Part shown: piece by piece, positions 3,832 through 45,795 of the stretch
How positions within the stretch are numbered: position 1 is the stretch's first letter
Layout: the number at the start of each line of letters is the position of its first letter
From: Amblyomma americanum
Lineage: Eukaryota > Arthropoda > Arachnida > Ixodida > Ixodidae
Direction of reading: 5' to 3'
Length of the DNA: 64,000 bases
Assembly: GCF_052857255.1 (NCBI RefSeq)
Contig: NC_135497.1
Coordinates: forward strand, 191,369,485 to 191,433,484
Made by a program: the position numbers and the translations under genes
The notes under the pieces: model-generated
What the model saw: only the letters and a program-made list of their open reading frames with translations
Told to the model about the DNA's origin: nothing
Database searches by the model: none

Positions 3832-4280
3832 GCGCTAAGTACGGAGGAGCAGACAGAGACAACACTGGCGCTTCCAATCGTCTAATGTCTTATTTGAAGA
3901 CGCCCGTAGGTGAAATAGGCGTTTTTAGACGTCAGAAGCGAAGCAAGCACAACATCTCTGTGGAGGTGCACAATGATGCATGACTGCCACCGCCTTGCGT
4001 GCTGTCGTAGTCCATCGCACCTGTGCTCCCAGCTGATGCAGCCCATGTCCGTCGACGCGTTCGGCCAGGAACGGAGCGGCCGAAGATTGCAGAGCGGGAG
4101 CCGGAGGTTGATGACGATGAGTAGAGGACTGCACAAATTTATATGCATTTTTAGAACGCAAAGCACAAGAGTCTTAACGAAAGGGAGCTTCTCTCGGCCA
4201 CACTTCCTGCCGTGTTTTTTAGGGCTTTCATGCTCTAAAATTCCTTGCCTGCAGGCTGGGCCTGCCGATGAAGGAGTGCA

Positions 4281-4370
4281 ATGAAAGTTGGGCACTGCTC
4301 ACACACATCCTCACCAGTGGACACGCTCCCTTCCCGTGTTGAGCTTGAGGGCGGGAAGATGCCATATCGG
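4281..4370 (+). pseudogene. Disrupted counterpart of the 25553-25906 reading frame
   Basis: The ATG at 4281 opens the same frame as in unit 2 (MKVGHCSHTSSPVDTLPSR...). A 1-base difference near 4352 (GGCGGGAAG against GGCGAGGAAG in unit 2) shifts the frame into an early stop. If the frame is coding at all, unit 1 is the broken copy or unit 2 has a chance extension. The minus strand here is also open, so the region may simply be GC-rich non-coding DNA. Confidence 0.15.
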
Positions 4371-6117
4371 TGACGCAGACAGCGGTAGGTCCGCGGGTGG
4401 CGTTCCCAGGGTCTGCTGGTGGTCGACAAGCGTGGCCCGCACCTGCTCTTCATTTGTCCCCATGTGCACGGCTACGCGGGGTAGGGAAACTGCTCCCCGG
4501 AAAATGTTCATTTGTCTGTATACATGGTAGTGCGAATGGGGGATACTGCACGCACGCACACGGCACGCAAAAGGCACACTGGAAACGAGGCCTTTTGTAT
4601 TCCAAGTTCAGTGCGATGTTCTTTGGCGTTGACGATGGTTGCAGTGTGATGGGGACAAACAGTAATTGGACCCAGATGACGCCCGGTCCGCTCCGAGAGG
4701 TGCATAAAGGCAGTCCTTGGGAGCAATCTACCTCATGTAGTCATACGATGCACAAGCAAATATTGTTGGCTGCCTCCAGACGAAGCCTGCTGTAGCCGCC
4801 GCGGCTGAGCCTACACTGAGAGTCGACTGCGTTTGCTTATCCCCCAAGGCTGGAGGTCGGGGTTAGGTCATAACAATGCGTAGCTATGCGGAATCAGTTG
4901 AATTTTTGCGGCCGAGTATCGGAACACACCTGATCTAGACGAAGTTTACCAAATGGAGTAGTCTAGAAATGCGACCACCTCACTGTTCCGGATATAGACA
5001 TTGACGCTAGTCGGAGCAGCTAGAAAATAACTAGAAATTTAAGTCAATTAGACGCCCTACGGTGAAAATCATCACCTCAGTTTGTGCCCCCCTGGCTCCA
5101 TAACGTATGTGCTGGGCGACAGTGTTAGCATTCATGAGAGATTAGCAGCATTTTGTAGTGGGCTATAGTTGGTGCAGGTCTTCCATTTCAAAAACTGCGC
5201 GATGACACGAGGACCGAGTGACGTTACCCCGGCTTTAAAAACTGCACATCCCTCCCAAGGCAAAATGTAAGACTGAAAGAGGGGAGAGTGATGCTTTCCG
5301 GATTATCAAGAACGCAGACAAATGTGTGAGCACGCTGTCGATCATGCTTTCATCTAAAGAAATCGCGTTTATAATAGGCGCCAGTTTGCAACGACAGTTG
5401 TTTTTCTGCTCAGCACTAGAATTTATCGGCTTCGCCTTTGCCCTTGTTGCATGTTCCGACCCTTCACGACCATTTGATTCTAGGCTGTGGCTGAAGGTGG
5501 GTTCAGAATATCAGACCGTATTGAGGGTGGTCCGCGGGGGGCCGCTACCACATGACACAAACCTGATTCCTTTGAGTAACCTTGAGAGGCATATAACGCG
5601 TCTGCCGCCATCGGGTCGCAGAACTGTTTGACAATGCCGGCACTTATTTCAGTCGGCCTCTTCTGAGGCACCGGATTGTTTAGCCTATATGTTACAGCCC
5701 GATCACTACTTTCTCTATTAACATCTGCTCGCTCGCCGGCTACAGCTACCCGCATTGAAGCCGGTTTGGCTCTGCATGCACTATTTTCGTTTAGGATCGC
5801 TTTTAGTCCACGCAGAATTGCGTGGGTGTCTACCATTGTTTCTTCCGTTGCTTGTTAAATGATAGGTTAAAGATTTCGGATGAAAGTTCCGCTGCTGAAC
5901 TTACAGGGCGGGCGCCCTTCGAGGGCTCGTGCGTGCTCCGCGAACTAGGGCCACGCCAAATTCAAAGCGCGAGGCGTGAAACGTCGCGACTAATCAGTTT
6001 GGATTTATGTGTGGAATTTGTGAGATCGTGTTAGCTAGGGCTTGAGCTCGAAGAGGTTCTTGTGCAATCGCCAAACGAGGCTATGGACGGCTATAGGCCT
6101 TCGGTAATTTTTTTTGT

Positions 6118-6530
6118 GTGTGTGCGCACGTTTCGAGTTTTCTTGGTTGTTTTAATGGCGCCTGACCACCGTTATTAATTTGTCGTCTTGACACATGCGC
6201 GATCGTGGTGGTAACAGAAACATCGCTAAGGCATGAAGAGACCATAATGTTTTTCATGAAGTGGTTCTCTCTTAGCGCTGTTTCTCTCCAAGCCCACAAG
6301 GATGAGATTTAAGACGCAGGCTTCTTTGCCAAGTTATGTAGCCCTAGCAAGCCGAGCATCAGGCCTTGCCATAGCTTGTACCCATTTTGAGGAAACCGGT
6401 GGGTAACTCGCCGGCTGTGGGAGTGGAACCCGGCTACACCCGAAGCCGAGGCGGGTGCTCCACCACCATCATGTTTTTAGTGCTGGTTGAGAGGTACCTG
6501 CTGGATCCGGTTATTCTCTGCTGATTCGCA
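6118..6530 (-). mobile_element. tRNA-derived SINE-like insertion in segment A
   Basis: This block is present in A but absent at the equivalent point of A' (19755). On the minus strand, GGTGGTGGAGCACCCGCCTC is followed by a tRNA-like B-box region (GGGTTCCACTCCC here, GGGTTCCAATCCC in the better preserved unit 2 copy). A tRNA-unrelated body then runs left to a T/TG-rich end near 6115. I recognise the adjoining CCGGCGAGTTACCCACCGG body as a common tick repeat. The ends are approximate. Confidence 0.6.
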
Positions 6531-7268
6531 TTTGAGAAGATCCTCGTACAGCGTGTGTTCGACAATCATACTCTCATATTACATGCATGGCTCCATTCCA
6601 TGCCATCGCCCATTAGCTGCAAAACTTCCGAATAGCTCTCGGACGCTTCAAGTGCAACGTCTTTTAAATTGAGAGTGCACTTACGCTCAGCATTCATGTT
6701 GAGTATCTTAGTAGCAGAGCTTTCGTAACAGCGCAAGCAACACATGTATGGCGAGATAAAAAGGACTTTTCCGAGTTTGTTCTTAACATTGTGGTAAACG
6801 TAAAATTTTCAGGCCCGGTACATTTTTTCCTGAATACGTCGGCCGGATACGATCAGTGTTTCTAAATGCTCGGTCGTTTATGACGGCCTACGAGCATTTG
6901 ATTCTCGGTGGGATCTATTTCGTGCGCTTGCTTGTATTATCATTTACGACGATAGTTATGCATTTGGTTCCAGAATGTTACCACTATCCGTAATGGGGCG
7001 ATTGAGGTTCATGCGCGCACTTGTAGTGAGTTAGCACTAAACGATTTGTCTTGCTACGTGGATATGAAAACCATGTATTACGATTGCACTGTTTGTGGCA
7101 CGTTAGGTTTTAGCGTGCGAACTTCCAAATTATTTGGCTACTTGCATCCAAACGTGAGGCACATGCGCTTTTATAGCGTGTGCGGAAACTTCCTTCGTGA
7201 GTTTGTTTCAGCGAGCCACTGTCCTCCAATTGAAGATCAGTCCACCCTGCATCGTTGCTGTAGATGTA

Positions 7269-7506
7269 CAGTACTCACGGATTGAAATAGGACATTCGAA
7301 GCGCAAGCCTTGCAGTGCCACGCAGGCATGTGGTAAACCACAGGCCGGCTCGTTGGCGACTGGAAGGAACAATTCTGCTTTGTAGATGTTCTCCCCCTCG
7401 CGCCATACCACAATGCACCACCTTGGTTCCATGAGCATCTACGGGCGGCGCTCCATGAAGCGACGGCCACGCGCTCCGAATGTCCTATTTCAATCCGTGA
7501 GTACTG
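7269..7506. mobile_element. Tc1/mariner-type MITE, unit 1 only
   Basis: This is a 238-bp insertion. The left terminus CAGTACTCACGGATTGAAAT and the right terminus are perfect inverted repeats for 30 bases, and 35 of 36 bases match. TA flanks both ends (7267-7268 and 7507-7508). Unit 2 keeps the empty site with a single TA (GTAAATGTACATAAATGG, TA at 28548-28549), so target duplication is shown directly. CAGT termini with TA duplication are typical of Tc1/mariner transposition. The interior encodes no transposase. A TA-directed transposase must have been active after the 21-kb duplication, or the site is polymorphic. Confidence 0.93.
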
Positions 7507-7735
7507 TACATAAATGGCACGTGGCGACACCTGACCGCGGGAATGTTGGCTCCCTATAAGGCCGTACCCGCGCAGCTTTACACTTCCTGTCCGCTAATTT
7601 TCGCTCAAAAGACCAAGCTGTGAGCCGAGCCTGCCTCGTCTTCCCCTAAACAAGGCCATGTTTCCCGCAAAGTAGATTGGACACGCTTCGAGATTTTCAG
7701 TCGCTTTTCCCCTCTCTGTAATGGTGGGATAAGAC

Positions 7736-8598
7736 TTAGCATTCATTTGCAGGCCATCGGACCACCCTACAAGTTTTTTTACAATTTTCGCTGCCTCATG
7801 TCTACCCTCATGTTTGAAAATTCTAGCTTTGTTTCGGCGTCTTTTGTTGGCGCTGCATTTTTGTTTCATTTTTTTTGTTTTTTATGAAGCGGCTATTGGT
7901 TCTTTCAGTGTCTGGTTTTGTGGCCTAGATCTTATGTTGCGAGTCTTGTCACTGCTCTCGGGACTGATTTTTGGTTATCTGTCGGTTCTCAGCGCACGTG
8001 CTCACAGAATTTTAAAGCGTCCTCCGATTGTCTGGTTTCACTGGTTTCGCGTTCCCATTGACTTCTGTCTCATGTTTTTTAATGTTTGTTTTTGGTCTTT
8101 CTTTTGTTGCGGCCCCACTTGCCATGCGCTTTGCCCTCTCTCCATCCTTCTCTCCGCCACTACCCACTGTATATCTTTCCGCCCGTTTCAATTTTTTTTC
8201 ATTAAAACTTGTTCGTCAGCGCTCTGTTACGAGTTCCAGTGTTTCTCTGTATTTACCTGCGTCCGAAAGTCCATGCTGGCCCACAGATCGATTCATACCA
8301 ACTATCCCAGAAGAATCCAATTTTGAAGGACATAATAATGCGCAATGTTCATTTTGCAAACTCAGGCCACCCAGAGAAGGAGGAATTAATGGAGGACCCT
8401 GAGCATGGTTCTTGACGGATACTAGCCTCAGATAGACAATCCGAGAGATGACAGGGCGAGGGCTAGGACATTCTGTCATTGAGGCGGAACAAAATTTTTA
8501 CGCCGTCTCACAAAAGGACACCCTTTGAGTCTTCGTCGCCGGTGTTGCCATTAAAACCTGGAAGCTAACTTACGCAATATTAATTCCAAAACAAGGCA
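7736..8598. other. No gene recognised (T-rich)
   Basis: A plus-strand frame of 170 codons (7814-8326) encodes a very hydrophobic, Phe/Cys/Leu-rich peptide as expected from T-rich DNA. In unit 2 a small deletion (TTTTTTTTGTTTTTTATG shortened near 28915) breaks the same frame. I see no known element here. Confidence 0.5.
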
Positions 8599-8811
8599 TT
8601 ACTGTTCTGAAGCAATTGTGCCACCCAAAAGGTAATTGCTAGTACAAAATAAACACGTTAGAAGTAATTTGACGACCGAGGCAACATAAGTGATTCTTAA
8701 AAAAAATTTCAACATGATGGAAATGAAGAGATCTGCAAAATTAGTGTTTTCCGACCGCGTGTTTTTTGGTACGCGAAACAAGCGGGACGCGTTCGCTCCG
8801 GAAGACGCCAT
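8599..8811 (-). CDS. Exon-like short frame beside a CpG-rich stretch (uncertain)
   Basis: On the minus strand an ATG at 8811 sits in a favourable eukaryotic context (AGC before and G after) and opens MASSGANASRLFRVPKNTR, ending at 8599 after about 70 codons. Upstream on that strand (8812-9110) the sequence is CpG-rich, as for a 5' untranslated region. In unit 2 the matching frame stops at once after the same N-terminus, because one base near 29803 creates a stop. I do not recognise the product. It could be the first exon of a decayed gene or a chance frame. Confidence 0.15.
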   Translation of the reverse strand: MASSGANASRLFRVPKNTRSENTNFADLFISIMLKFFLRITYVASVVKLLLTCLFCTSNYLLGGTIASEQ

Positions 8812-8998
8812 GCTGCATATCCACACGACAGACGGCGCCGTCGCCGCAGAGCGGCTGTCTTCAACAATGGAGGCACCCTACGGTAACGTGAGCCGTGGGA
8901 ACTACCGCGCCCGAGTATTGCGCTGGCTCCGGATGTTAGGCACAATGGGTTAGAAGGACAGCAAGCGCAGAACTATAGCGAGGTGCGTCTGGAAGGCT

Positions 8999-9550
8999 GT
9001 GCGGTCGCGTTTGAGGCAGCAAGCGCGCGATGGGGCAAAACTTCAGCCTAGCGCTGCCGAACTTGAAAGCAAGGATGTATGCGGCGCGGACCAAGCCATT
9101 TCCGTCTCTCCAACTCCACGTGGTGTCATCACACGGCTTTGTTCGAGACAGAAGCATGGACGCAACAAGAGTGGCTCAAGGCAGTTTCTTCTGGCACTTC
9201 AACATGGGGATCCTGACTGGAACAGATACCCCGGTCTCTGTTATGTGCACACGAAAATGATGATGAAGTGCATCTCATGTGAAAGAACTGAAGTTAAATC
9301 GTCGTTGTCCCCTAATCGTTTGCTGAGTGTCGGTGACGTGGCTCAAGCATTGCGAACATCATCAGCAACCAATGGCAAACCCGAGAATGACGAGGTAAGG
9401 TGGCACACTTTGCATACATTGCAGTTTGAAGCTCCGGTCCCGAAATCAGAGCCAAATTTTGTGCGCAAGTGCAAGCAACGAATTTATGCATGTTACATCG
9501 ATCTGTTTGCACTACGAATAGCGTACAGACCCTTGCCGACGATGGTATAA
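8999..9550 (+). CDS. 183-codon open frame, intact in unit 1 only (uncertain)
   Basis: The frame is open from a GTG at 8999; the first ATG is near 9257 (MMMKCISCERTEVK...). That leaves about 97 codons ending IAYRPLPTMV before TAA at 9548. Composition is not strongly biased. The unit 2 counterpart (30038-30394) has a TGA replacing CGA after GDVAQAL, so it ends about 64 codons early. No domain, signal peptide or membrane segment is evident and I do not recognise a family. The difference between copies fits either a recent pseudogene or a non-coding frame, and the second is likelier. Confidence 0.15.
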   Translation: MRSRLRQQARDGAKLQPSAAELESKDVCGADQAISVSPTPRGVITRLCSRQKHGRNKSGSRQFLLALQHGDPDWNRYPGLCYVHTKMMMKCISCERTEVKSSLSPNRLLSVGDVAQALRTSSATNGKPENDEVRWHTLHTLQFEAPVPKSEPNFVRKCKQRIYACYIDLFALRIAYRPLPTMV

Positions 9551-9559
9551 GCAAACGGT

Positions 9560-10689
9560 GCTTTGATCAGCAGAAAGCCACTAAAGAAATTAAAATAGCT
9601 GTCTTTCCTTAACCGATATTACTTGGTCTTCCCTTGATCCTTGATCCCGGGTGCACCGAACGTAGATGCATGTGGTTTATATCGTCGTGTGACGTGAGTC
9701 GGCAGGGGTGTCCGCTCTTTTAATGGAGGGACTATAGGAAGCATTCACAACTCGAATTAAGTTTTCTGGTAAAAACACAAGGCTCAGTAATAGAATCTGT
9801 GTGGTTTGAACTGCTAATAGAGACATTTTTTTTGTGCTATTTGCGTCTCAACTCTGTGATTGGAGTTATCAACATTAGCGGTTGCTCTTAGGTTTTGTCT
9901 TTCTTACTCCACGCATACGGAATTGCTTTTTTTCCTTCTGGCTCTAACATTTCCGGCTGATAGCCGCAACGGCGGCTGTGACTGGTCAATCGTGTCGCAT
10001 TGCGTTATGGCTGGCAGCTTTCCTTCTTGCAACTAGTGATGCTCTGACATACAGCCCTGAGACATGCGTGCGCAGTAAACGATTAAATATATTAATACGC
10101 TTGAACACTAAAAACTACATGTTTGATCATTGCCATATGTGGAGAGGGCAGTTGATTGTTGATTTTTTATTTTTAATGTTGTCACAGCGCTTACACTGAT
10201 TCATTAATTCTTGTTCTCGAGAATATCCTCAGGGGCTAGCGGGTTGGGACGCTGGTTGTTTGCAAGGTCAAGCATTCTACCTACTTGAAGTGTTTCACCT
10301 ATGCATGAGACTTTTGCAAAACATCAAGCGTTCTAGACATACGTTTTCCTCTGGTTACGCGAATTCTATGCATTACACATTTAAGCCGATAATATTCTGG
10401 TTAATATCCGGTCCCAGATCACAAGAGGCTCTTATCTGTCCACGAAATCGTTTAGAACTTTGGCATATTAAGTTCCCTCAATAGTCACAACCTCAATTGG
10501 TTATTGATACCTAATTTGTTTTTGCAGCACATGTCATGGTGTGCTGTTCTAGATACGTAACCATAAGTCGGTTAAAATGGCTAAAATTACACCTCAATAG
10601 CACCGGCCTGTAAGTTTCGTATCACAATTTGTGGCTCTTTCAGAGAAGACACACTAACATAGGTTTTCCGAGTTAGAGCATGGTGTGAA
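9560..10689. other. No gene recognised
   Basis: AT-rich sequence, nearly identical in unit 2 (30600-31730). Two plus-strand frames of about 74 codons (9978-10199 and 10260-10484) are kept in length in both units. That is expected from low divergence alone and they look random. No repeats were seen. Confidence 0.5.
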
Positions 10690-13050
10690 AGTAATCAATA
10701 ATAATCAAAGCTACTTGACTAGATGAGAGATGTGAAACTAGAATTCGAATCTTTTTATTAACCACGCTGCAACAAGCACGTTGCAGCCATTCCACAAATT
10801 TCTTTACCAATAGCTATCACTGGTCGGACAAACTAAAGACGTTATAGCGTTAAGAAATATAGAGAATAGGTTAGTGTCCCACGTTCCGTCGCGGAGTTTT
10901 TCCTCTGGGCCAAGCAAGAGCTTCTGCTCACGACGCTTGAAAATAACTCACAGCATCATGGTTGCATTCATTGGCCGGCCAGCAACATTGCCACAACATG
11001 CACTACCTCTGTGAAAGCGGCCTTGTCTAATGACTGTGGGAGTGAGATCTCTTCGGTCTACATCGATGAGGAGAAAGGAGACGTCAGACTATTTAGTCTT
11101 CTTGCGGAGTCCTTCCTCAACGCCAACTGAATCGCCTCCACGTCTGATAATGACCTCTCAGAAAGTCTACCAGCACTTCCCTCTTGATGTACGCCCAGGA
11201 GCAGTGCCAGCAGATGGCCTTCCTCATGTGGGAACAACGATGGCAAAGACAAGGGCCATTGCTTCAGGAGATGGTCCGCCCGCTCTGCCACAGAGTATGA
11301 GCACCGGGACGGCGGTACCGCACCAGCCTGGTCGAGTCCGCGCTAAGTCCCAGCCGAATCTCGACCCGGCCCGTTGTATAACGGTAAGGAAGATGGCCAG
11401 CTCTTTTTTTCTGGAAGGACACCCTATATCAGTGCCAGCAGACACTGTTTCTCGAGTAGGGGCACCGGAATATTGAAGACGAGGACCGTGGCTTCAGGAG
11501 ATGGTCGGTCTGTACTGACACAGAGGAAGAGCAGCAGGAATCTGATTACCGCATCCGCGTGGTTGAGTCCCCGCCCTGTATACTAGCCGAATTGCCAACC
11601 CGTCCGGCGGACACCACTGCGAATGGCTGCCAGCTCTTATTCCTCGATGGACGCCCTGGAGCAGTGCCAGCAGATACTCTTTCTCTAGTTTTAACCAAGA
11701 TGGCTAAGATAAGGACCGTGTCGTCGCGAGCTGCCATGTCCCCACCGCCAAAGAGAACGAGCTCGAAGATTGCGGTTGCCGCACTCGCATGGCAGTTGTC
11801 TTGCTCAACGTACGCAATCGACTGAGTCAGGGAGGTAGTTAGGAGCGCCGAAAACGGGAAGCTTCCAGGCGTCTTACGCCAGAACGACTGATGTCGCGTT
11901 GGCCACTAGCCAAAGAGCGCCTGCTTTCAGTGTCGAATGGCGTAACCCTAGCTGAATCTTGCCCGGCGGCTTTGACGGCCAGTGGGCGGCGCTGAAGAAA
12001 CTAGAGAGCTGTGAAGAGATGAGGACAAGACCTCAAAACGGTGCGCCGTAAGCCTATCAGGAATCAGCCTATTGACTGAGGTCGCGGTTGACGTTGCGCT
12101 CTTCTGTAGGCATGTTAAACCAAGGTAGCAGTTGATCCCGGTGTAGCGGTTACGAAGCCTTGTTCGAAATGCGCCGGAAATATCAGGGAACTGTGACCTG
12201 ATAGGAGGAATGATATTCTACCTGAAGGAATACAGTATCGCGAGTGTTTCAAGAATTCTGCCTTCTTTTTCTTCACTGATTGCACGTGCGCGCGGCACGT
12301 GATTGGCGAAACCCACTTTATCTTCCTGTGTTCTCGCATTTTCGGCGAGTCGAATATAACTACTGTACTGCGCATTTTGATTGGGTAAATTTTATATAAG
12401 ATCTGACAAGCGGTTTTCTGGTTTTCAAGCACTTTTCCGCCCGTGATCATACTAGCTATCTTCAAAGTGGTCAGGCATGTAAATGTTGTTCGTACTTTGC
12501 GCAACTTTAGGGAAGAGTCGCCTTTCTAACAGTTGGAAACCCCAAGTTTCCGACTTTTGCTTTATTTGTGGACTTATGAATGTGAACAGGGCTTAACGTG
12601 CGGGAGAACGGCAAAACATATAGCGCAATGACGTACTGCCGACCCCTCGGGGCTAAATAAATATCCGCTTTATTTCAGAGCACACACGTAGAGACAAACA
12701 AAAAGAAACCTTGCAGTTAGGATGGTTGAAGCGCTTTGTTTACTTCTCTGCACCAGATGAGGCTCATTTATTGCTGCTAATAGGCTCTGAGGATGTTTAT
12801 GAGATGTGGTTCGCGGTGGAACACTATGAATTTTCCTTTCAGAGCTTCTAGTTTGGTTATTGTAATGAAAAAGAACGTATCATTTGATATCTCAGTATTG
12901 AGAGCGCTACTGAATCATCGAAGACATTTTCTGCGTGAGGAAACACCGCTTCTCAAAAATGAATGTCCATTATTTACGATGAATCTGATTTTTTCTATAG
13001 AAGAGCGCGCTTTAATGGAATGAACAACAGAATAAAAAAGAATACATGTC
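10690..13050. repeat. Module B, unit 1
   Basis: This is a block of about 2.4 kb shared with 31730-34080 and, more diverged, with 47430-50690. It begins at AATCAATAATAATCA, passes through CACGTTGCAGCCATTCCACA, three monomers of a repeat of about 228 bp, and GAAGCTTCCAGGCGTCTTAC, and ends at AATAAAAAAGAATAC. The flanking portions are as conserved between loci as the repeats are, so the whole block duplicated as one piece. Minus-strand frame 12115-12504 (129 codons) is shifted in unit 2 and stopped in the 50-kb copy, so it is not retained. Confidence 0.8.
11169..11830. repeat. Tandem repeat of ~228 bp, three monomers
   Basis: Monomer heads (CCAGCACTTCC, GCCAGCTCTTTT, GCCAGCTCTTAT) lie at 11169, 11396 and 11629, so spacings are 227 and 233. 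Each head is followed by a core such as GCAGTGCCAGCAGATACTC and a pyrimidine tract. In one plus frame the monomers read with a shared motif, LDGRPGAVPADTLS-like, and two frames on the other strand are also open. The unit 2 array is at 32208-32860. Confidence 0.75.
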
Positions 13051-15059
13051 ACGAGGAAAACTACACGACTAGTAAGACAGAATAGACTCCTCATTTGAAT
13101 ATCCTGGGGGTGCTTCTCCAACCAAAACAAGTATGAAAATATGGGGCTTAACCTCTGCCAGGGACCATATTCTGTAAATTTCCAATTCGTCCTTTACCAT
13201 TGGTCGCAGGTGCCAGTGACGTAGATGACGTTTAGAATTACGCACATGATGACACTACCATCAACGTATGCCACTCGATGACGCTCTGATGGACCGGTGC
13301 CATTTCCTATTAAGACGGTGCTCGACGTGATTTTGCCATTCTTGACGAGCTATTTCGGTCTTATTTCCGCGTGAGGAAGGAATCCAAGGGGTGTTTTCCG
13401 AAGGATGGACCGGACTTCCTTAAACTTTAACACAATCGGACCTAAAAGAACTTATCTCACATTGGCACAATGGACGGTATAGAGAGGGCGCGAAGATCGA
13501 ATTTTGTGGCAACACAAAACAAAGTGAACTGGGAAGTGAGGATCTCAGTCCAGTAGACAACGCTTCCACCAGTCCTTTAGTCTAAATGTTGCCTAGGGGA
13601 ATGAGGCCCCCCTCAACCATTATTCCCTCGCTTCTCTATTGGCAAAATGCGGGAATTTTAATACTGATGAAACAAGAATTTATAGTTTTCTGCTGTGACA
13701 TTGGAAACCGCATTGAACAAGCTTGAGCATCGTTATACTTTGGTACTTTGGTATTATCGGTGCATCTACTCATGACCGCTTCTCGGTGAAGTACATTTAT
13801 GGACTGGAGTTGTCGATTTAAACCGAGAAATTTCGATAAAATTATGCCAAATTCTATGGATTTTCACCCAAAGAGGCAAGTAACTTTGGCATGCTCACCA
13901 CAGCTGGGTGGCGATTGAATTTGACTGCGTTGGACGCAGTCAAAGAAGAAATACGGTGGCGGCATTGGATTAAGCAGCGCACTTGTGCGTTTTGAGATAG
14001 TTCTTCATACCTTACACGCCTGTGATGGCGGGGATGCGCCAAATCCTGGGTGTCTGTTAGCGAAGCGCTGTTTTTCACTATCGTCACCCGCTTAGGACGA
14101 TTGCTTGGTTAAGTAGGCTGCGCCGCGGCATGTACGGACACGTACGTGAACCCATGGATAAGAATGAAAAAAAAATTGTCATGTTCCCTATACCGTGAAG
14201 TTTTAGTGGCAGTTCAAACGCTGCTGTCAATATGTAGATAGTGTTACACCGCAGCCTGTTGGTCAACCCAGCGCAAGAACCCAACGATATAGCATCTCGG
14301 CCTAGTTTTTGGAAAGTAACTTGCACTTGCAATATCTTCTGATGGCCCCGCATTTAACCCACTCTTTTAGTGCGTGTGGTGTCATACAGAGTCCACCTCG
14401 CGCCGTCACGTGCATGAAGCCCGTCCAAGGTAAGTGATCAAAGCAGCCAGAAGATAACGATGAGATAATTAATTGATGCGCTGCGATTAGAGAGAGAAAT
14501 GGAGGAGTAGAGGAGAAAATGGGGAATGCTGTAGAGACGATATAGAGATTGAAAACACGATAAGGAAACGCTCTGCCAGCCAGGACAATACGAAGGGCAG
14601 AGAAGCAAGAAAACAAGGAGTGCGGCCAAGAAAGAAAGAATGCAAAAATGGGGAGAAAATGAAAGGAAGCTGTTGCAGGGACAGAAATAGAGAAATCTTG
14701 ATCTCAAGCTACTGGGCTAGTTGTGAAAACTTCCATGAACATGATGACGCCCGTCGCCCGCTGTCCAGGCCGGGCTATCGGAGCTGCGAGCGTTCCTCCA
14801 CGAGCTGCTGCAGCTAATAAACGTAGTGCTCGGCGAAAGCGAGCTCCGCCAGGATTTGCACTGTGGGCAGCCGAGGATACAAAATAAGAAACCGAAAAAC
14901 CAGCAAGCGTGCAAAGCATCGCTGCTGACCTTCTTAATGCGAGAGCATTATACAGCCTATTACTAACGTAACCTGGCATCAGCTCATAAAAAAAGCAGTC
15001 CGAAACACTACCAATGATGTCAAAATGGCGTGAAGCGTAAACCATAAGATAGTAAACGC
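13051..15059. other. No gene recognised; purine-rich tract near 14.47-14.70 kb
   Basis: The sequence aligns throughout with unit 2 (34080-36110) and has no long frame kept by ATG start. About 14470-14700 is unusually purine-rich on the plus strand (AGAGAGAGAAATGGAGGAGT and similar). The matching unit 2 tract (35530-35760) has several indels, as expected for low-complexity DNA. Confidence 0.5.
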
Positions 15060-15330
15060 ACTGATAGGCAATTACAGTGTTGAAAATAGTAGCAATTGTT
15101 GCACCTGATCACATCATGGCGTAATAGTGTTAGATGACGTCATAACGTAAGATACGTAAGATATTGTCACAAACTGAGATGCGTCATAGTGCATGATGAG
15201 GTCATACCACATGTATGTTGAATTTGAGATATTACATCATAATCAACTACATGTTATCGTATGCAATATGGTTTTGTCAACTACGTCATATCGGACAATG
15301 TGACGTGATCTAACAATTCACGTGATGTGG
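15060..15330. repeat. Degenerate TGACGTCAT-like motif cluster
   Basis: Words such as GATGACGTCATAA, GATGCGTCATAG, GATGAGGTCATAC, TTACATCATAATC, CTACGTCATATC and GTGACGTGATC recur at roughly 20-45-base intervals. This resembles a decayed short tandem repeat built around a CRE/ATF-like palindrome. Unit 2 has the same cluster at 36120-36370. I infer a decayed minisatellite and cannot show binding function. Confidence 0.45.
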
Positions 15331-15446
15331 AAAGGGTGTTAGTCAAGGGTGAGAGAAACGCCGGCATGCGCTAGAGGCGCGGAGCAGGAGATGAATGGTT
15401 TCGCATTCACAGCACGTAAGCTATGTTATGTTTCCTCGTATATTAT

Positions 15447-15898
15447 GAGGCGAAGGCGTTTAATGGCTCATTCTACCGTCCGTCCGGCGTTATTAGTGCT
15501 CTCAACAAAAAGATGAAAAATAAAATTTAGAGGGGCACTTTGTTGGCCTAATGTGCGGTGAGGCGAAAGCCTTTAGCGCGGTGTTGCTGCTTGTGTCACT
15601 GATGTGTGGCTAAGATGTTAATTAAGTACACAATTGTTTTTGAATCTCAAATGCTGGAGACATTAGAGGGCGTTTGGGAGGCATCCGTCAGATTCGACGC
15701 CTTTCCGCAAACACTCTCCACCGTCCTAGACAAGGGGAACTTCGTATGCGTTTGCAGGAAGTCGCGTAGTTGTTAGCACGCTCGGCTGCGGAACGGAAAA
15801 GTGGCGGTTCCAATCCCATCATACACAAAAAAAAAAATTTTCTTATGTAACGGACGCCGGACGGACGGGAGAAAAAGCCATTGAAGGCTTTCGCCTTA
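15447..15898. mobile_element. TIR element with internal tRNA-like block, unit 1
   Basis: The left end GAGGCGAAGGCGTTTAATGG and the right end (complement at 15848-15898) are inverted repeats of about 45 bases with a few mismatches, including ACCGTCCGTCCGGCG. Inside, TAGTTGTTAGCACGCTCGG and GGTTCCAATCC (15758-15815) resemble a tRNA A box and B box. They are followed by an A-run near 15828-15838. The element therefore looks like a MITE that either contains a small tRNA-related SINE or was built from one. Target duplication is unclear (TAT/ATA flanks). The twin is at 36499-36950. Confidence 0.65.
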
Positions 15899-21694: not shown

Positions 21695-21702
21695 AGGCGA
21701 GA

Positions 21703-36498: not shown

Positions 36499-36950
36499 GA
36501 GGCGAAGGCCTTTAATGGCTCATTCTACCGTCCGTCCGGCGTTATTAGTGCTCTCAACAAAAAGATGAAAAATAAAATTTAGAGGGGCACTTTGTTGGCC
36601 TAATGTGCGGTGAGGCGAAAGCCTTTAGCGCGGTGTTGCTGCTTGTGTCACTGATGTGTGGCTAAGATGTTAATTAAGTACACAATTGTTTGTGAATCCT
36701 AAATGCTGGAGACATTGGAGGGCGTTTGGGAGGCATCCGTCAGATTCGACGCCTTTCCGCAAACACTCTCCACCGTCCTAGACAAGGGGAACTTCGTATG
36801 CGTTTGCAGGAAGTCGCTTAGTTGTTAGCACGCTCGGCTGCGGAACGGAAAAGTGGCGGTTCCAATCCCATCATAAACAAAAAAAAATTTTCTTATGTAA
36901 CGGACGCCGGACGGACGGGAGAATAAGCCATTGAAGGCTTTCGCCTTAAT
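36499..36950. mobile_element. TIR element with tRNA-like block, unit 2
   Basis: This is the copy of 15447-15898 with the same inverted ends, the same internal TAGTTGTTAGCACGCTCGG and the same GGTTCCAATCC. The A-run after the B box is shorter here. Confidence 0.65.
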
Positions 36951-38479
36951 ATAAACCAAAGAGTGGAGACCGGAGCCGCAGAGGTTTGCCGTGAATAAAA
37001 CCACTATAAAATAACTGAAAAGGATGGTAGTGAAGCTCACGCTCGCCAGACTCGCCGTTTAAAAGACTTACTTTTGCTAGTCGCCGATCGTCGGCGTAGA
37101 GAAAGCGAGGAACGGCAGGCGACGAAGTCCTCGACGCGGCGCAAGCGTAGAAGACGAACCTTCAGCTTCCTGAACTGCCGTCTCGAAGGAGGTTCGGGAC
37201 AGGAGCGCCGCGCAGCAGCGACAGCGTAAGAAACGTCAGAGCGAATTAGCGGCTGCTGCCGCCGCCCTGCCGTAAAACCCAGCCCAATCAATCACGCCGA
37301 TTGTTTGACTGGGCCGTTGCCTGTTTTAGCAAATTTTTAGTTTCTTCAATGGCGACAGTACTTCGCTCTGCATACGCAGCCGTAGATGCGACCACATTCC
37401 TTTCTTCCTTTATTTCCGAAAGAATCAGTTAAGGTGCATATGCATGTATACATTTAATTTTTCCATACTCTTTGGAGATCCGATACAAAAGGCTTTATAA
37501 AACGCCTGACAAGTCATCGGATCCTGTATTGCACACAAAGCTTCAGACAACGGTGCGACGATCAGAAATACATTACTCTGATGTGGCAAAATGAAGAAGC
37601 GAGAAGGTTCGAATTGCACTGGTTACGTGCAGTTGTAAATGATGTCGTGCATACTAACGATAACAAAAGGACTAATAAATGCGGATACACACAAGTGATC
37701 TTAACAAAGACAATACAGTGACCTGTGAATGACAATGACACCGTCAATATCATAATTTAGCCAGGAACTGTGGGAACCTATGGGTAACATTTCGGGCAAA
37801 TCGCTGGTAAATAGACTGTTCGCGCTGAAAAAAGGCCCAGATAAAGTCTGAGTGATTTCAGCCTCCCAGGAGTTCCACATTTTGTCACAGAAGTAAATTT
37901 TCTCTCAAAACAGCCGAAAACCGAAAAATGTCGGCTGAATTTTTCAAAAATTAAATCTGATAAGCTCAACCCTTAAAAATGATTTAGATGTTAACTCCAC
38001 AGAGTTTTTTTCCAATAATGTTCCGTTTGTTGTTTTGTGAGTTACACTTTCTTAAATGCGTACGCAAAAAAAGAAACGATGCAGACTAAAACTGGCGCAC
38101 CCACTACAGTATGGAGATGAACCCCATTGAGTTGTTACCACATGGCGAAATAATATCTTGCCTTTGTCACCAGAAATCTGCACCTCGGCTTTGCAACCGG
38201 ATACGCAAGAACAGTGCAAAGCGATTCTAAAATTGTCTAAATGCAATATTTCAGGGGCGGTGTGACGAAGTGGGGGGGGGGGGGGGGGGGCTATTGGTTT
38301 TGGTTCCTTATTTTGTTGGTGTTCAATCACTGGCGAGTTGAAGTATCATACGTAAAGAGGAGTGCATCCAGTGATCGAAGAAATCCTCCGCAAAAATTCT
38401 CCGTGGGGTCTCTAACGAAACCGTCGCGCAATCCACTCCTAGGACACAATTTTTTTGCGCGCAAAAATTTAATTACAAA

Positions 38480-39046
38480 ATGGCTGCATCGAAATTTTTT
38501 TGTTTTTTAAGAAGGGAAGGGCGGTTACTAGTTGATCTGGCTGGAAAACCGAACGATGGGCCTTCCGCAAGAGTTAGGGAGCGAAAGCTTGCTTCGCAAA
38601 TGAACCGTTTTAGACGCTTTAAGGTATTGCTTGTTCCGACACAAAGTAGGGAAGAAATAATGCGTCATGGAATGTACCGAAATGGGAAAAAAAAGATATA
38701 CATTGAGGCATGTAGGAAGCTTAGTGCAATTGAAGGTGCCGTAGTACTAGATTCAGTGCACTTCTGCCTAAGAAATGGCGTCCCATTTATCTATCCCGCC
38801 ACGTGTCCCAAAATTCCCTTCAAGCCGTGCCTCGCTCTACGTGCGCCATCGCACACATCCCACGACTCTCTTCTTGATATGATACACAGCGTATACGAGA
38901 AACGTGGAACGCCATGCGTACGGGCATACAGGGTGATTAAAATTATGATTTACAGATTTCGCAAAGTACGGTGCTCAGAGGTACCTGAAATCCATCTCTG
39001 CACATCGTCTATGTGGCGGCCAGGGGAGTCCAAAGCACGAGGATAA
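38480..39046 (+). CDS. 188-codon open frame in unit 2 (uncertain)
   Basis: An ATG in good context (ACAAAATGGC) opens a basic frame of 188 codons beginning MAASKFFCFLRREGRLLVDL. Lys/Arg-rich patches occur around residues 35-50 and 70-80, with several cysteines. From about residue 151 the frame is encoded by the TIR element that starts at 38929, so the C-terminus is transposon-derived. The unit 1 copy stops at codon 66 and is also frame-shifted. I recognise no domain. It is either a degraded exon with a mobile-element tail or a chance frame. A polymorphic or lineage-specific gene remains possible. Confidence 0.2.
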   Translation: MAASKFFCFLRREGRLLVDLAGKPNDGPSARVRERKLASQMNRFRRFKVLLVPTQSREEIMRHGMYRNGKKKIYIEACRKLSAIEGAVVLDSVHFCLRNGVPFIYPATCPKIPFKPCLALRAPSHTSHDSLLDMIHSVYEKRGTPCVRAYRVIKIMIYRFRKVRCSEVPEIHLCTSSMWRPGESKARG

Positions 39047-39749
39047 CTTCTACCGCCAGGCATATCATTGCCTAAGATTTATTAATGAACTTATTAATCA
39101 CTACAGTAACCGGACATGCCTGTATTGGAAAGTTAGAGCGAGTCTTATTCCCCAATAATTATATTTAATAAAATTTTCCTAGCATGTGTGTTTTACGAGA
39201 TCATCCTTTACAAACTTTCAGCGGGATCCCCGTAATTGCGCATGCAAGGCGTTGAGATCGGCGCGAAACTCCTACCAGCGTGACGAGGCGTTTCGTCTGC
39301 CAACGGCATAGAGTGACTGGTGAAGCTAACGACTGTTTCCTTCCACTTCCGGCTACCGATATAGCAGAAAAGCGTGATGCAATAGCTAAGTCACACTACT
39401 GAGGATATTTGCGCCGAGTGCCAGCGCTGAACATGTGTAATTGCGCGAAATCAGTGGAAACTTTCGGGCCGAATACCTCATAACGCATGTGCTCTGGACG
39501 AACTCTATCAAATGCAGTAGTCTAGAAAAGCGACCGCCTCTATGTGTCCGGTATAAACATTCACGATAGACGCCGTGCTTAAAAGCCTAATTAGAAATTT
39601 AAGTTAATTAGATGGCTGATGGTGAAAATTATCATCTCCCTCTGCGTCCACGTGGCCGTGGCCGCATAACTTATGTGCACAGATGTATTTGACGTAGCTT
39701 CCAGCGCGTGACATTAAGAAAGCTGTAAAACTTAATTTTCATCACCCTG
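38929..39749. mobile_element. TIR element with TA flanks, unit 2
   Basis: This is the copy of 17864-18681, with CAGGGTG ends and TA at 38927-38928 and 39750-39751. It is nearly identical to unit 1 over its right half. Confidence 0.75.
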
Positions 39750-41205
39750 TATGATACTCGGCGACATTGCTAGCATTTATGCGAGATTAGCAGTATTTTC
39801 TAGTGGGCTATAGTTGGCGCATGTCGTTCACATCAAAGAACTGCGCCAAAAAACGCTGTCCAAGTGACCATACCCTAGGTCTGAAAACACTATATTCCTC
39901 ACCAATGCTAGAGGTAAGACTGAAGGAGTTGAGAGTGATGCTATCAGGATTTTCAAGAACGCAGACAAATGTGTGAACACGCTGTCGATCATACTTTCAT
40001 CTAAAGAAATCGCGTTTTTAATCGGCGCCAGTTTGCAACGACAGCTGTTGTTCTCATCAGCACTATAAATTATCGGCTTCACCTTTGCCCTTCTTGCATG
40101 TTCTGATCCTTCACGACCATTTGATTCTAGGCTGTGGCTTAAGGTGGGTTCAGAATATCAGACCGTATTTAGGGTGGTCCGCGGGGGGCCGCTACCACGT
40201 GACACAAACCTGCATCTTTTGAGTCACCATGAGCGGCCTGTCATGATTCCGCCGCCATCGGGTCGCAGGCCTGTTTGAAAATGCCGCCACTTATTTTAGT
40301 AGGCCTCTTTTGAGGCACCGAATTATTTGCGTATATGTTACAGTCCGATCACTACTTTCTGCATTAACATGTGCTCGCTCGCTGGCTATATTTGCCCCGA
40401 ATGAAGCCGGCTTTGCTCTGCATGAAATATTTTCGTTTAGGATTGCGTTTAGTCCACGTAGAATTGCGTGGGTGTCTACCATTGTTTCTTCTGTTGCCTG
40501 TTAAGTGATAGCTTATAAAGAGTTCGGCAGCTCGACAAATTGATGCGCCTCGTAAGGCTTGGTCCGGCGGCACACATACAGGGCTGAGCCACAGTTGCTC
40601 CGGAAAATTTTGCGGGCGGGTGCCCTCGGGGGACTCTCGGGTGCTCCGGTAACTAGCGGCTTGTCAAATGCAAACGAAGAGACGTGAAAGGTGACGATTA
40701 ATCAATTTAGATTTGTTTGTGGAGCTTGTGTAGCGGTGCTAGGTCGTGCTTGGCTAGCTCGCGAGATCCTTGTAGTATCGTGGAACGAGGCTGGGCACTG
40801 CCTAGGTGTCCGGTAATTTGTTGTTGCGGCGCGCAAAGTGCAAAATTACCCTTATCTACTTCCATCGAAAAGTGACGCGCATATGCTTCTATGCCGTCTA
40901 GTGTCGAAGCTTGCTTCCTGAACTTGAAGGCTTGTTTTGGCTATCCGCTGCTCTCCAAATGAAGTTGTGTGCGCGCTGCAGTGTTGTTTCGAATATGCAT
41001 ACATGGAGCGTGGCGACGCCTGAGTGGGGCAACTTTGGCTCGCTCTAAGGTCGTACCCGCGGGGCTTTACACTGCCTGCACGCTAGCTTTCGCCCTAAAG
41101 ACCAAGTTGAGAGCTTACCTCGTCTTTGGTATAAAATGTCGCTGCTTGCGAGAAAGTGGATTGAACATGCTTCGTACTTATCGGTTGCTCTTCCTTACTG
41201 TGTTG
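39450..41205. repeat. Segment A', unit 2, with ~570-bp internal deletion
   Basis: This is the equivalent of 18385-20705. CCGGTAATTTG joins GTTGCGGCGCGCAAAGTG near 40820, removing about 570 bp that unit 1 keeps between 19757 and 20328. The offset between units changes from 21,070 to 20,500 across this point. Confidence 0.85.
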
Positions 41206-43742
41206 TGGTGGGGCTTGTCTTCGCCTCGGCTGTCGCGCAGCCTATGCGTTGCCGAATGCCAAAATTGAAAAGATCAATGTTCAATAAGCTGGCACTGAAG
41301 CGGTAGCAAGACATGTCCTAGTTGCTACGGACACGTGCTCTGCAGGATACGATGTGTGTTGTGGTGGGCATGGTGCTCGTAACAGATTGCATAATTACGA
41401 GAAGATGGCGGTCACACATTACTAGACTGTTGCTCGCAGCGTGCGACTGGTCAAGGCGCCAATTTGTGCCATTTGAGGAAGAGCTGGGAGCGTTTCACTG
41501 CGTATGGACTTAAATGAGTGCTTTTATCATGGCGGATTCTGCGTGGATGTCATCAGTTTTTCAGCACTTGTCGAGAGGGTTAGCTTCTTCGTACAGTCGC
41601 CGCATCGAACGAGCAACAAGCGATCGAGATGTAAGAATGGGCGAACTTCTTTTTGCGCTTTCATCACGTGGAACAGTGCGTGTCAAGCAAAATAATGCGT
41701 GTACGCTGGACATGGCTTTAGCGATGGATCTACAGCGACGTCCGCAGTATCTTTACTGCACAGGAACTGAGTGCGTCGGAAGTTCCTTTAGACACTTCGT
41801 GACCCTTGATGGGCACAAAGCCCTCATTTTCGCCCTTCCGCCCTCACCCTCACCATTAAATCATTAATCCTCTCTCACTGTCATCCTGATTTTGTAGTCT
41901 TCCCTCCACCTTACTCTTATTTCGGAAAATATGGTGGTCCTCCTTCACCCTCACCTAATTTTGCTGTCCCTCCCTGGCTCTCACAATAAGCATTTTTAAC
42001 ATTTGAGCTATTTGTCCTTATTGCCGATTTTCCCCGATATTACTCACCAACACTAGGCGCAAGCTATTGTTCACTGGGCGCTGTTCTTTCTTTCATGTCG
42101 AGTCCCGCGGTCCTTATAAGCGTCTCACTCCGAAGTTATCAGTAGGCGAGAATGGTGGCGCAAACTAGCAGAGGGACTACACGCATGCTGCAGCCGATCA
42201 CTGGCAAAAGCCGTGTAAATCTGGTACACCCGGCAGCGGCTAAAATGAACTGTGCCGGAGGCCGGGCCGTGAAAAGCGCAGCAGAAGTTCTCGCCACGCG
42301 CTAAATAGCCAATCAGAGGCGTCTCCAGGAGAGTTGCATCCAAGCTTACCAACCGATACAGGACAACGCGTCTGGTTATCCCTAACGCAACCACCTCTCG
42401 GCCCACAAGTCGCGATTGTGGTGGAACACAAGCTTGGCGTAAATCACGACAACCATTTTCATTACCATTGGGGCGATATAAATTTGCCGTGCAGCAGCAG
42501 CACAACTCTTTCTAGTTCGGTGGCGATTAAAAATTACGACGCCAGCCGTCTCTCGAATCTTGCCGTATAACAGGGCACCGACTCAGGGAATGAGCAGCGA
42601 CTCAGCACGCTGCCGCGGGGTTGTACACTAAGCTGCCAAGCATCCTTTTGTTTGAAGCGATCGCCACCCACCATGGAGCTGCATATTCCCTTGTAGGCAG
42701 CGTGTACAGCCGCATCCGCGGACGGACGCGCGTGCATGGGCGGTGTCAGTGGAGAGGTAGGCAGAAGAGCCTCCGGTGAACACCCTGCGGCATAATTAGG
42801 ACCGCCCATGGCATAGTCGAACTGAACGGTCGTCCAAAGAAAGCATTCCTACCGTAGCTCGACTCTAGAGAGTTCTTGTTTTGTAATTTATCTCTCGTCG
42901 TCTTTCACGCGTGTTCTGGAATCGGCTGCGCCCCGGACGGGAACCTCAACGAATGGCCGGGAATGGAACCAACTTTGTGACACACCGGCGGCCTCAGCCC
43001 GTGCATCTTTGCCCTCCTTCACCCTCACCCTCGAACACTTTTCTTCGCTAATCCTCCTTCTCCTTCATCTCACCGACTGAATCCCTCATGGGTTGAAGGT
43101 TCCCATGACTGGTTGTAACCTCCCATCGTCGTCGGCTCTTCGCTCTCAGTGCACTGACGACCGTTCGCGCAATTGTCGCTAGCTGGCGCTAGTCGCCTGG
43201 AGGTAGGTTAACAGCTCCCTGTCCTGGCCTCCCCATCCCTCTCGCCGTATGTACAATCAAGTTTCCTCCTCCTCCACAATACAAATATAAACTAAGCAAG
43301 AACAGTCGAGGCACGTTCTCCAGGTCCCGTTAGTACTTGCAATCTACCGTCGCGTCTGAACAATACGAACTCGAAGCGGTCGGAGAATTTGTTTGAATTA
43401 ACTAAAGTTCGGACTAAAAAGTCAGATCGGGACTAATGGCGAATGTACTGCTTTGCGCTCGTCCGCCAAAATATTCTGTTTACTCGACGAGGTCTGATTA
43501 CATTATCTGAAAAGCTATGCTGTATAGAAAATAAAAACCTTTTAATTGGGACTAATACTGTTTGGCGGTCGGTCCTAATTTTCCGCGCGGCCAAAATATA
43601 TATAGATAATTAGACGCATACCTTTTGTATCCGTCATAACAAGGAAGTTGAAGTTGTATTGCAATCCACGCGCGCCTGCGCACTGTGGAAAATTATGAAG
43701 GAATAGAAAGCTTAATTCTCAGTCAAATGATACAACAGTGTC

Positions 43743-43743
<1 letters not shown>
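41206..43743. other. Unit 2 equivalent of 20706-23290
   Basis: This stretch contains the pyrimidine-rich tracts, the TATA/initiator pair and the frame-shifted counterpart of the 138-codon frame (start near 42152, shifted near 42298, offset frame 42334-42570). No gene is supported. Confidence 0.5.

Positions 43744-43814
<71 letters not shown>
43744..43814 (+). repeat. (AAT)n microsatellite, about 23 units
   Basis: Perfect AAT repeats form the 3' tail of the minus-strand SINE. The tract is absent in unit 1, so it arrived with or expanded after the insertion. Confidence 0.95.
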
Positions 43815-43815
<1 letters not shown>

Positions 43816-44052
43816 TGGTTTTTGGCGAAAGGAAATGGCGCAGTATCTGTCTCATATATCGTTGGACACCTGAACCGCGCCGAAGGGATAAAGGAGGGAG
43901 TGAAAGAAGAAAGGAAGAAGAGGTGCCGTAGTGGAGGGCTCCGGAATAATTTCGACCACCTGGGGATCTTTAACGTGCACTGACATCGCACAGCACACGG
44001 GCGCCTTAGCGTTTTTCCTCCATAAAAACGCAGCCGCCGCGGTCGGGTTCTA
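43744..44052 (-). mobile_element. 5'-truncated tick SINE with (AAT)n tail, unit 2 only
   Basis: An insertion of about 305 bp interrupts CAGTGTCGAA/GAAGGAAAAAGAA, which is continuous in unit 1 at 23290. The body (GTGCCGTAGTGGAGGGCTCC ... TTTAACGTGCACTGACATCG ... CGCCGCGGTCGGGTTC) is a tRNA-derived SINE that I recognise as common in hard ticks. It is read on the minus strand, so (ATT)n is its 3' tail. The head stops at the B-box region (GGTCGGGTTC near 44041-44050) and the A box is missing, which is a 5' truncation typical of incomplete target-primed reverse transcription. The related complete copy is at 61310-61551. Confidence 0.9.
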
Positions 44053-44630
44053 AAAAGGAAAAGAATTATTGAAAGGATGATGTTTGAAGATCTTGTACTC
44101 ACCCAGGGAGGACCACTGGCTGTCCAGGACCCCTCTAGCTCCCGCGTCTCGCTTAATCGGTTCGACCAGCCCAAGCTGATCGGTTGGGTTAGCGGCTAGC
44201 AGAGCATCTTACACCAGTGTGTGGATGGCGAAGGTTGCTCCCTGTCTAATTCATAACATGCCTTTGTGTGATCTGCTTTCTTGTTTATCTTCTCGGTAAA
44301 ACTTAATTACTCTGTCGCTCCTCTGCCTTACTAGTTTCCTCGTTAAATAGCATAGCTAAGCTCACCGGCTTAGCGCGTTAATCAGTGAGAACTGACTATC
44401 AATAGCGATCGATGTCTAGAGTGGCGGGCCCGTTTTGACGTTCCACAAGGGACTGCCCGGTTGGGCATCTCGCAGGCTTGTTTTGCCGACTAACTCGCGT
44501 GCATACTCACCCTTCGTCCGATTGCGGTCGTCAGTTCGATCGCGTTCCCTGCACGCTTCACGGACTTCACTGCCCGCTTGCACGAAGGAAATTAGTCTAT
44601 TCCCGGGTGTTGTCTTATTCCCAGTCTAAG

Positions 44631-45067
44631 CCCTCCGTTGCTTTTGAGGAAAGCAAAGGCGCATAGCTGGCTTATTGGGTTGGTGGACACCAAATCGCGT
44701 TGGGAGGTGCTGATGGCGTCCACGTAAATAATACGCAACGCATTACACAACTGCCGTTGACCCCCTAAATGGGTTGTAACTAGCTATTACAGATTTCGCT
44801 GCCAAAATTAACTGCACCCTGGAAAATTTTAAGCGCAAGCTGTAATAGCTTGTTAGAAGCTATTCAGTAGAAGAATTTTAGGGGCTACAACGGTAGTTGT
44901 TTAAAGTGTTACGCGTTACTCGTTAGGTGAACACCTATTAAGGCGGAAACTTGGGCAAGTTGGAAAGAGTTTGAAGCGTTAGCAAAAATGATTTCATAGG
45001 TGAACGCCACCACCACATGACAGTGGGCCAATTATAACTCTTTCCTTTCCTCAAAACCAACGGAGGG
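44631..45067. mobile_element. Foldback MITE, unit 2
   Basis: This is the copy of 23875-24327. The left end is CCCTCCGTTGCTTTTGAGGA and the right end is TCCTCAAAACCAACGGAGGG. A short stretch near 45020 (around ACATGACAG) is deleted relative to unit 1. Confidence 0.75.
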
Positions 45068-45795
45068 TTTCGACTGACAACACTTGCAGCTAGACTATTT
45101 GGTTTCTACAAGCGTGCCCTCGAGTATGGAAGTGTACCTGGAACGCGCTCGACCGGAAAACCGCAAGTGGAAGATGGCCGAGTCTGCTCATAAGCGTCTA
45201 GACACCAAAGCAGGCCTGTGAGACGCCAAACAGGGCAGTCGCCTCTGAAATGTCAAAACAGGCCTGCCACTCCGGACCTCTCTGCCGCTAATGCCAATCA
45301 GCTTTCACTGTATCATACGCCAGGCCAGTAGGCTTGGATCAAACAATTTTTAAAACCCAAAGCACCTCGAGCGTGTCTTGAGGGCCTTGCACTGAACAAT
45401 GGTATGCTTTAGCGTTTCGCAGCCTTGCATGCAACAGCAAAATGACAGACATGAATGGATGAACAGCATGGCCGACGTTCTAGAGAAGAAAGGCCGCCAC
45501 CGTCTGGAAGACGTTGAAGTAACAACGAGCGTTAGATGTTTGCTTTACTAGATGAAGAAAACGAAAAAGAAGGCGCCGCTCGTCTCGAGAAACGGAATAT
45601 AATACCCTTCGAAACGATCACCGCCTAGCGCCACCTATCAGAGAAATTACAGTGCGCGTCTACCCATTGTCGAGTTGAACCCCCTGAAGATACGTCCCGA
45701 ACGTAATTTGCTTCGTTTGGGGGGGACCAAGGTAGGCCTAGAATTTGGTTTGCGTTGCGATATGGTAACGCTCCAATTAGTAATTCCATGCATGC

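What the first reader, a model, noticed from the sequence alone, without database searches (positions are those of the whole stretch)
3832..45795. A 21-kb unit in direct tandem with a microhomology junction
Two successive copies cover almost two-thirds of the window. The left edge (ACAGCGCTAAG), the junction (GCATGCGCTAAG) and the right edge (CATGCAATTA) share only GC, so the join carries 2 bp of microhomology. That suggests end joining or template switching, not recombination between long repeats. The unit has no defensible gene yet is kept over its whole length. It could be a macrosatellite, an ampliconic region, or an assembly error that placed two haplotypes in series. The precise junction and the private insertions argue for a real duplication, but divergence at this level also occurs between tick haplotypes.
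Basis: partly seen in the sequence, partly recalled or inferred. Interest (0 to 1): 0.75.

Follow-up and report, generated by a model that had tools for sequence, protein, structure and literature searches.

The report
Two array units fused end-to-start
The two 21-kb copies are probably not a fresh duplication: they look like two members of an existing large tandem array of gene-poor DNA, fused where the stretch between them was lost, so the doublet is a scar of ordinary array turnover.

Summary
Window 3832-25106 and 25105-45795 are direct copies (95.4% over 20,293 aligned bases), joined with a 2-bp GC overlap.

The reading changes. The window lies in a ~362-kb array on C1 (191.230-191.592 Mb) of units A-B-C (~41 kb plus insertions): 8 A, 8 B and 8 C copies, plus one inverted, deleted relative 0.5 Mb upstream. 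The "21-kb unit" is only B. Elsewhere one B sits between A and C; here unit 3 is A-B1-B2-C and the next unit has no B.

B1 and B2 are not sisters. B2 belongs to a young right-hand group (~98% alike); B1 is 94-95.4% from every other fetched copy. Sisterhood is rejected (dlnL 825, p-AU 3.5e-5), and similarity to young unit 5 jumps from ~94% to 97-99% at the junction. So it fuses two different units, losing at least one C plus one A (~20 kb). The break lies in a palindrome inside a dispersed repeat. The B-less neighbour reflects a second join: a copy of the array's right end, with 299 bp of flank, joined to C.

No conserved ORF of 100 aa or more was found. A haplotypes-in-series artefact is disfavoured; no reads could be examined.

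The parts
1..3831 (.). segment A of unit 3 (A3)
   Evidence: matches the A of units 1, 2, 4 and 5 at 93.1-95.3%; 8 A copies in the array
3832..25106 (.). B1, first copy of segment B; old-type at most diagnostic sites
   Evidence: old-type allele at 198 of 239 diagnostic sites and at 15 of 15 after 22,000
3981..3984 (.). founding junction of the whole array (TGAC, 4-bp overlap); also at 25254-25257 in B2
   Evidence: native left flank precedes 3981 in unit 0 and in L034; native right flank follows 3984 in L035
7271..7504 (.). 234-bp inverted-repeat insertion private to B1 among the six fetched B copies, duplicated target TGTACA at 7265-7270 and 7505-7510
   Evidence: terminal inverted repeat 7264-7304/7471-7511; empty site in B2; absent from units 0, 1, 2 and 5
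24746..25106 (.). 5' part of a dispersed repeat at the end of B1, cut inside the palindrome TAATTGCATGCATGCAATTA
   Evidence: 2433 candidates, 40 scored; palindrome perfect in unit 0
25105..25106 (.). junction J1, GC overlap, B1 end joined to B2 start
   Evidence: 1 of the 40 listed genome places spans it, its own
25105..45795 (.). B2, second copy of segment B; belongs to the younger unit group
   Evidence: 98.1% to unit 5, 98% to units 5, 6 and 7 over 3 kb; sister to unit 5 with support 100
43746..44048 (.). about 303-bp insertion shared by B2 and unit 5, absent from B1 and units 0, 1, 2 (units 6, 7 not read)
45486..46150 (.). dispersed repeat running through the B/C boundary (extends past 46150)
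   Evidence: 3675 candidates, 40 scored
45796..61724 (.). segment C of unit 3 (C3)
   Evidence: 8 C copies in the array plus one inverted outside it
56094..64000 (.). tail of C3 plus A4: near-identical to the array's right end where compared
   Evidence: 5 differences in 56,094-57,954 against 31 in 54,000-56,094; 5318 of 5377 bits for 57900-60880; A4 end plus flank 99% over 875 bp, 98.7% over the last 456 bp
61725..64000 (.). start of segment A of the next unit (A4), continuing past the window to junction J2 at C1:191435474

Best explanation
The window lies in a ~362-kb tandem array of ~41-kb units (A-B-C). The doublet is a fusion scar: the broken end of one unit's B, cut inside a palindrome within a dispersed repeat at the B/C boundary, was joined with 2 bp of overlap to the A/B boundary of a different unit of the younger group, losing at least one C and one A (about 20 kb, possibly whole units). 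End joining between misaligned units, or a replication template switch, would do this. The B-less next unit comes from a second join (J2): a tandem duplication or circle of the array's terminal block (C from 46047, A, and 299 bp of right flank), later linked to other units by homologous recombination in C. Shown: the array, unequal ancestry of B1 and B2, both junction sequences, and near-identity of both sides of J2 to the last unit. Inferred: deletion as the type of event, order and age of the events, enzymatic route.
For: B copies at 8 places and C copies at 8 places in one array. B1-B2 identity (95.4%) is hardly above that among units 0, 1, 2 and B1 (93.3-95.0%) and like B1-unit 5 (95.2%), while B2-unit 5 is 98.1%. 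Unit 5 is B2's closest fetched relative in 14 of 14 segments with data; B2 is B1's closest in 2 of 14. B1+B2 as sisters rejected: dlnL 825, p-AU 3.5e-5 (6 of 8 B copies). Similarity of unit 3 to unit 5 is 93.7% in A and 97.4, 99.0, 99.0% in the first three 500-bp steps after the junction. B2 and unit 5 share a ~303-bp insertion missing in B1, U0, U1, U2. J2: among the scored places the whole 299 bp recur only at the array's end; the sequence right of J2 is 5395 of 5449 bits to the last unit's C, the C tail left of J2 is 5318 of 5377 bits to the last unit.
Against: On the whole of B, B1's own place is weakly supported (with unit 1, 72); in the 3' half B1 is next to the pair B2+unit 5 (support 99) and carries young-type alleles at 23 sites between 15.8 and 20.8 kb, so an old relation of B1 to the young group, or exchange, has blurred ancestry. 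The B/C sides of the two junctions lie only 251 bp apart in unit coordinates (45795 and 46047), about 1.2% likely if independent, which hints at one event or a hotspot. The switch points in C3 (56,094) and C4 (between ~49 and 54 kb) were not shown to coincide, and the 54.0-56.1 kb stretch is patchy. Deletion cannot be separated from a template switch by sequence alone.
Confidence: 0.68

Rival explanations
1. One duplicative insertion: a 40,886-bp copy (B2-C3-A4 plus 299 bp of right flank), ending at J1 and J2, was spliced into the B/C boundary of a normal unit A3-B1-C4 with loss of 251 bp.
For: Removing the segment leaves 43,005 bp, one normal unit; the two outer sides lie 251 bp apart in the same dispersed repeat; explains two Bs then no B in one step.
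Against: Does not predict that C4's start is nearly identical to the last unit's C (5395 of 5449 bits); B1 is old-type up to 25,057 while C4 is young-type from 46,047 (24 of 24 sites in the first kb); B2 is no closer to unit 7 than to units 5 and 6.
Confidence: 0.17
2. Tandem duplication of one B with a 2-bp junction, recent or old, followed by exchange of B2 with, or its spread into, other units.
For: Direct order and precise junction; in the 3' half B1 is next to the pair B2+unit 5 (support 99).
Against: B1+B2 as sisters rejected; similarity to unit 5 changes at the junction itself, which a spread from B2 would not explain since unit 5 has an ordinary A-B join; B2 shares an insertion with unit 5 that B1 lacks.
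Confidence: 0.07
3. Assembly artefact: haplotypes or array pieces placed in series.
For: Array repeats are hard to assemble; A4 plus 299 bp of flank looks like an array end followed by more array, and its small divergence from the true end (about 1%) would suit alleles.
Against: J1 and J2 share only 2 and 1 bp, too little overlap for a misjoin; no N; most units differ by 2-7%, which accurate long reads separate (recalled); B1 and B2 are not an allele-like pair.
Confidence: 0.08

Closest known systems
Human macrosatellite/megasatellite arrays (PMC3018141 and PMC2588610, passages)
   Same: head-to-tail array of large units; [quoted passage not shown]
   Different: ordinary units here are about 41-52 kb against 3-12 kb for the human arrays in the passages seen, and only 8 copies of each segment; copy-number variation not testable here
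CUP1 arrays of yeast (PMC4232551, abstract, start of the introduction and one discussion section)
   Same: tandem repeats founded by unequal non-homologous joins with 3 bp or less shared at the junctions
   Different: 1.2-2 kb units with a selected gene; here a gene-poor unit, and a non-homologous join later fused two already diverged units
Microhomology-mediated break-induced replication / templated insertion (PMC8421209, search listing only)
   Same: short overlaps at joins, copies of other segments placed at breaks
   Different: the junctions here can equally come from end joining; no replication signature was shown

Membership tests
Recent simple tandem duplication | the two adjacent copies are each other's closest relatives | tested here: not met
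   (dlnL 825, p-AU 3.5e-5; 6 of 8 B copies)
Macrosatellite/megasatellite array | head-to-tail units of several kb or more, at one locus | tested here: met
   8 A, 8 B and 8 C copies in one array plus one inverted deleted copy 0.5 Mb away; larger units than the human examples seen
Macrosatellite/megasatellite array | copy number varies between individuals | not testable with these tools
   one assembly only
Non-homologous (microhomology) junction | joined ends share only a few bases | tested here: met
   J1 2 bp, J2 1 bp, founding junction 4 bp
Haplotypic duplication artefact | half read depth over each copy, no spanning reads | not testable with these tools
   no reads available
Tandem gene-family array | a conserved gene in every unit | tested here: inconclusive
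   0 of 61 ORFs of 100 aa or more intact in all comparable units; best of 899 codon-position tests p=0.0016; 0 of 10 ORFs with a Pfam match at E 0.1; so no long conserved ORF, but short exons and RNA genes are not excluded

The most novel reading that the evidence does not exclude
The array's own terminal block left as a circle closed at J2 (flank 299 bp joined to C 46047) and re-entered the array by homologous recombination in C, carrying a piece of outside flank into the interior, so the array grows by capturing its own edge.
Probability: 0.15. Interest if true: 0.5.

Novelty: new member of a known kind. Interest (0 to 1): 0.33.

Why it matters
It turns an apparent 21-kb duplication into a readable record of array turnover: a founding join (4 bp), a fusion of two units (2 bp) and a copied array end (1 bp), all non-homologous, between tracts mixed by exchange. 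It also shows that a doublet with a clean microhomology junction need not be a duplication: without the neighbouring units the wrong event would be inferred.

Tried and rejected
Rejected: (1) simple duplication of B. (2) The idea that J1 falls at the end of a dispersed element, suggested where most matches stop near 25104; one search showed that the repeat runs on through the intact boundary, so the stop was only the query switching to B. (3) The one-event insertion model, my favourite until, now a rival. (4) A gene in the unit: ORF, codon-position and Pfam tests gave nothing; ARAGORN and Rfam gave one weak tRNA-like match at 61471-61547. (5) Conserved non-coding islands: the least variable 150-bp stretches lie mainly at 52.0-52.8, 53.3 and 54.5-54.8 kb, not followed. 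Literature searches bearing on ticks listed no such array, but the lists were capped (15 of 16, 12 of 19, 8 of 3,125 and 8 of 152 papers), so absence in print is not claimed.

Full report
Observation. The two 21-kb copies and the GC overlap are real. The whole genome was then asked for more copies. A 1-kb probe of B has, besides its own place and one copy split in two, seven further matches over nearly its full length at 90-95%, one of them inverted. A 3-kb probe of B2 matches 8 array places over its full length, itself included, plus a 1-kb piece of the inverted relative. A C probe matches 8 array places, itself included, plus the inverted one. The end of A is seen at 8 places. Order along C1: B0 C0, A1 B C1, A2 B C2, A3 B1 B2 C3, A4 (299 bp) C4, A5 B5 C5, A6 B6 C6, A7 B7 C7, A8, flank. 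The stretch 191.20-191.50 Mb was read; units 6 and 7 are known from search scores and two short fetches only.

Units. Lengths from A to A are 50.8, 51.6, 61.7, 22.2 and 44.6 kb for units 1-5. Units 3 and 4 are the odd ones: two Bs, then none. Their sum minus the 40,886 bp between the two unusual joins is 43,005 bp, one normal unit.

Ancestry of B1 and B2. Projected on the window, pairs among units 0, 1, 2 and B1 show 93.3-95.0%; B1-unit 5 95.2%; B1-B2 95.4%; B2-unit 5 98.1%. The tree joins B2 with unit 5 at support 100, and forcing B1 with B2 costs 825 log units (p-AU 3.5e-5; 6 of 8 B copies). B1's own place is weak on the whole of B (with unit 1, support 72): it goes with unit 1 in the 5' half (100) and next to the pair B2+unit 5 in the 3' half (99). 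By score B2 is as close to units 6 and 7 as to 5 (5176, 5095 and 5116 of 5413 bits; the others 4638 or less), so B2, 5, 6 and 7 form a young group. At sites where B2 and unit 5 differ from an agreed state of units 0-2, B1 has the old state at 198 of 239, the young one at 36 and another at 5; 23 of the 36 lie at 15.8-20.8 kb, which speaks for past exchange or an older link (sums of the table). At the junction the similarity of unit 3 to unit 5 changes from 93.6% (last 500 bp of A) to 97.4, 99.0 and 99.0% (first three 500-bp steps of B2). The simplest reading is that A3-B1 came from one unit, and B2-C3 from another whose A is gone.

Where it broke. The B/C boundary reads TAATTGCATGCATGCAATTA in unit 0, a perfect 20-bp palindrome; in C3 and units 1, 2 and 5 it has one or two changes. 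It lies inside a dispersed repeat with thousands of first-look candidates, which runs on both sides of the boundary (40 scored each). J1 keeps 15 of the 20 bases and continues at the A/B boundary. A role of the palindrome in breakage is inference.

Founding junction. Upstream of 3981, unit 0 and the inverted relative L034 share a different sequence (90.5% over 3.36 kb spanning the point), taken as the native left flank. Downstream of 3984 the last A (L035) and A4 share another sequence (369 of 375 identical; 98.7% over 456 bp), taken as the native right flank. Inside the array the two are replaced by a direct A-B join with TGAC common to both sides.

Second join. After A4 come 299 bp of that right flank, part of it a dispersed tRNA-like repeat, then C from 46047, with a 1-bp overlap. 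Left of the join, C3 from 56,094 onwards is nearly identical to the last unit (5 differences in 1.86 kb, against 31 in the preceding 2.1 kb, 10 of which cluster within 75 bp; then 5318 of 5377 bits). Right of it, C4 is nearly identical to the last unit's C start (5395 of 5449 bits), less so at 50.7-53.5 kb (4948 of 5135, still the best match), and no longer at 54.0-57.9 kb (6680 of 7043; unit 6 is best with 6836). Both sides of J2 therefore look like the same terminal block, as in a tandem duplication or circle of it, with later exchange in C. This explains the B-less unit without a direct tie to J1. That the B/C sides of J1 and J2 lie 251 bp apart is the main fact that this two-event account leaves to chance (about 1.2%) or to a hotspot.

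Content. 62 stop-to-stop ORFs of 100 aa or more exist in the reference unit, 61 with at least three comparable copies; none of the 61 is open in all of them. The best of 899 (overlapping) codon-position tests has p=0.0016, no more than expected from so many. Ten ORFs had no Pfam match at E 0.1. Short exons or RNA genes are not excluded. Resemblance over the whole length is what shared descent in an array gives; no constraint is needed.

Verdict. A true structure, in my view wrongly read as a 21-kb duplication. It is best explained as two array units fused by a short-overlap join. Of modest interest as a clear record of array turnover.

Noticed in passing
window 48205-49268: 228-bp minisatellite, 4.7 copies in C3, apparently longer in unit 0 (C1 about 191222.8-191225.5 kb); a related-looking 229-bp repeat at 32223-32717.
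   Followed up: partly
window 46828-47040: 70-bp tandem repeat, 3 copies, 97% alike.
   Followed up: no
window 57900-59615: high-copy dispersed element, 87-95% alike across the scored places outside the array (40 of 918 candidates scored).
   Followed up: no
window 61471-61547 (minus): weak tRNA-like match, possibly a tRNA-derived SINE; the SINE reading is a guess.
   Followed up: no
window 5105-5879 and 18681-19456; 11430-12496 and 49246-50334: older internal repeats within the unit at 86% and 79%.
   Followed up: no
L034 (C1:190715001-190725000): inverted relative 0.5 Mb upstream: left flank, B 3981-8566, then C from 47191; most of B is missing.
   Followed up: partly
window 52015-52790 and 54465-54764: least variable stretches among units (2-3% variable columns against 12.6% overall).
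   Followed up: no
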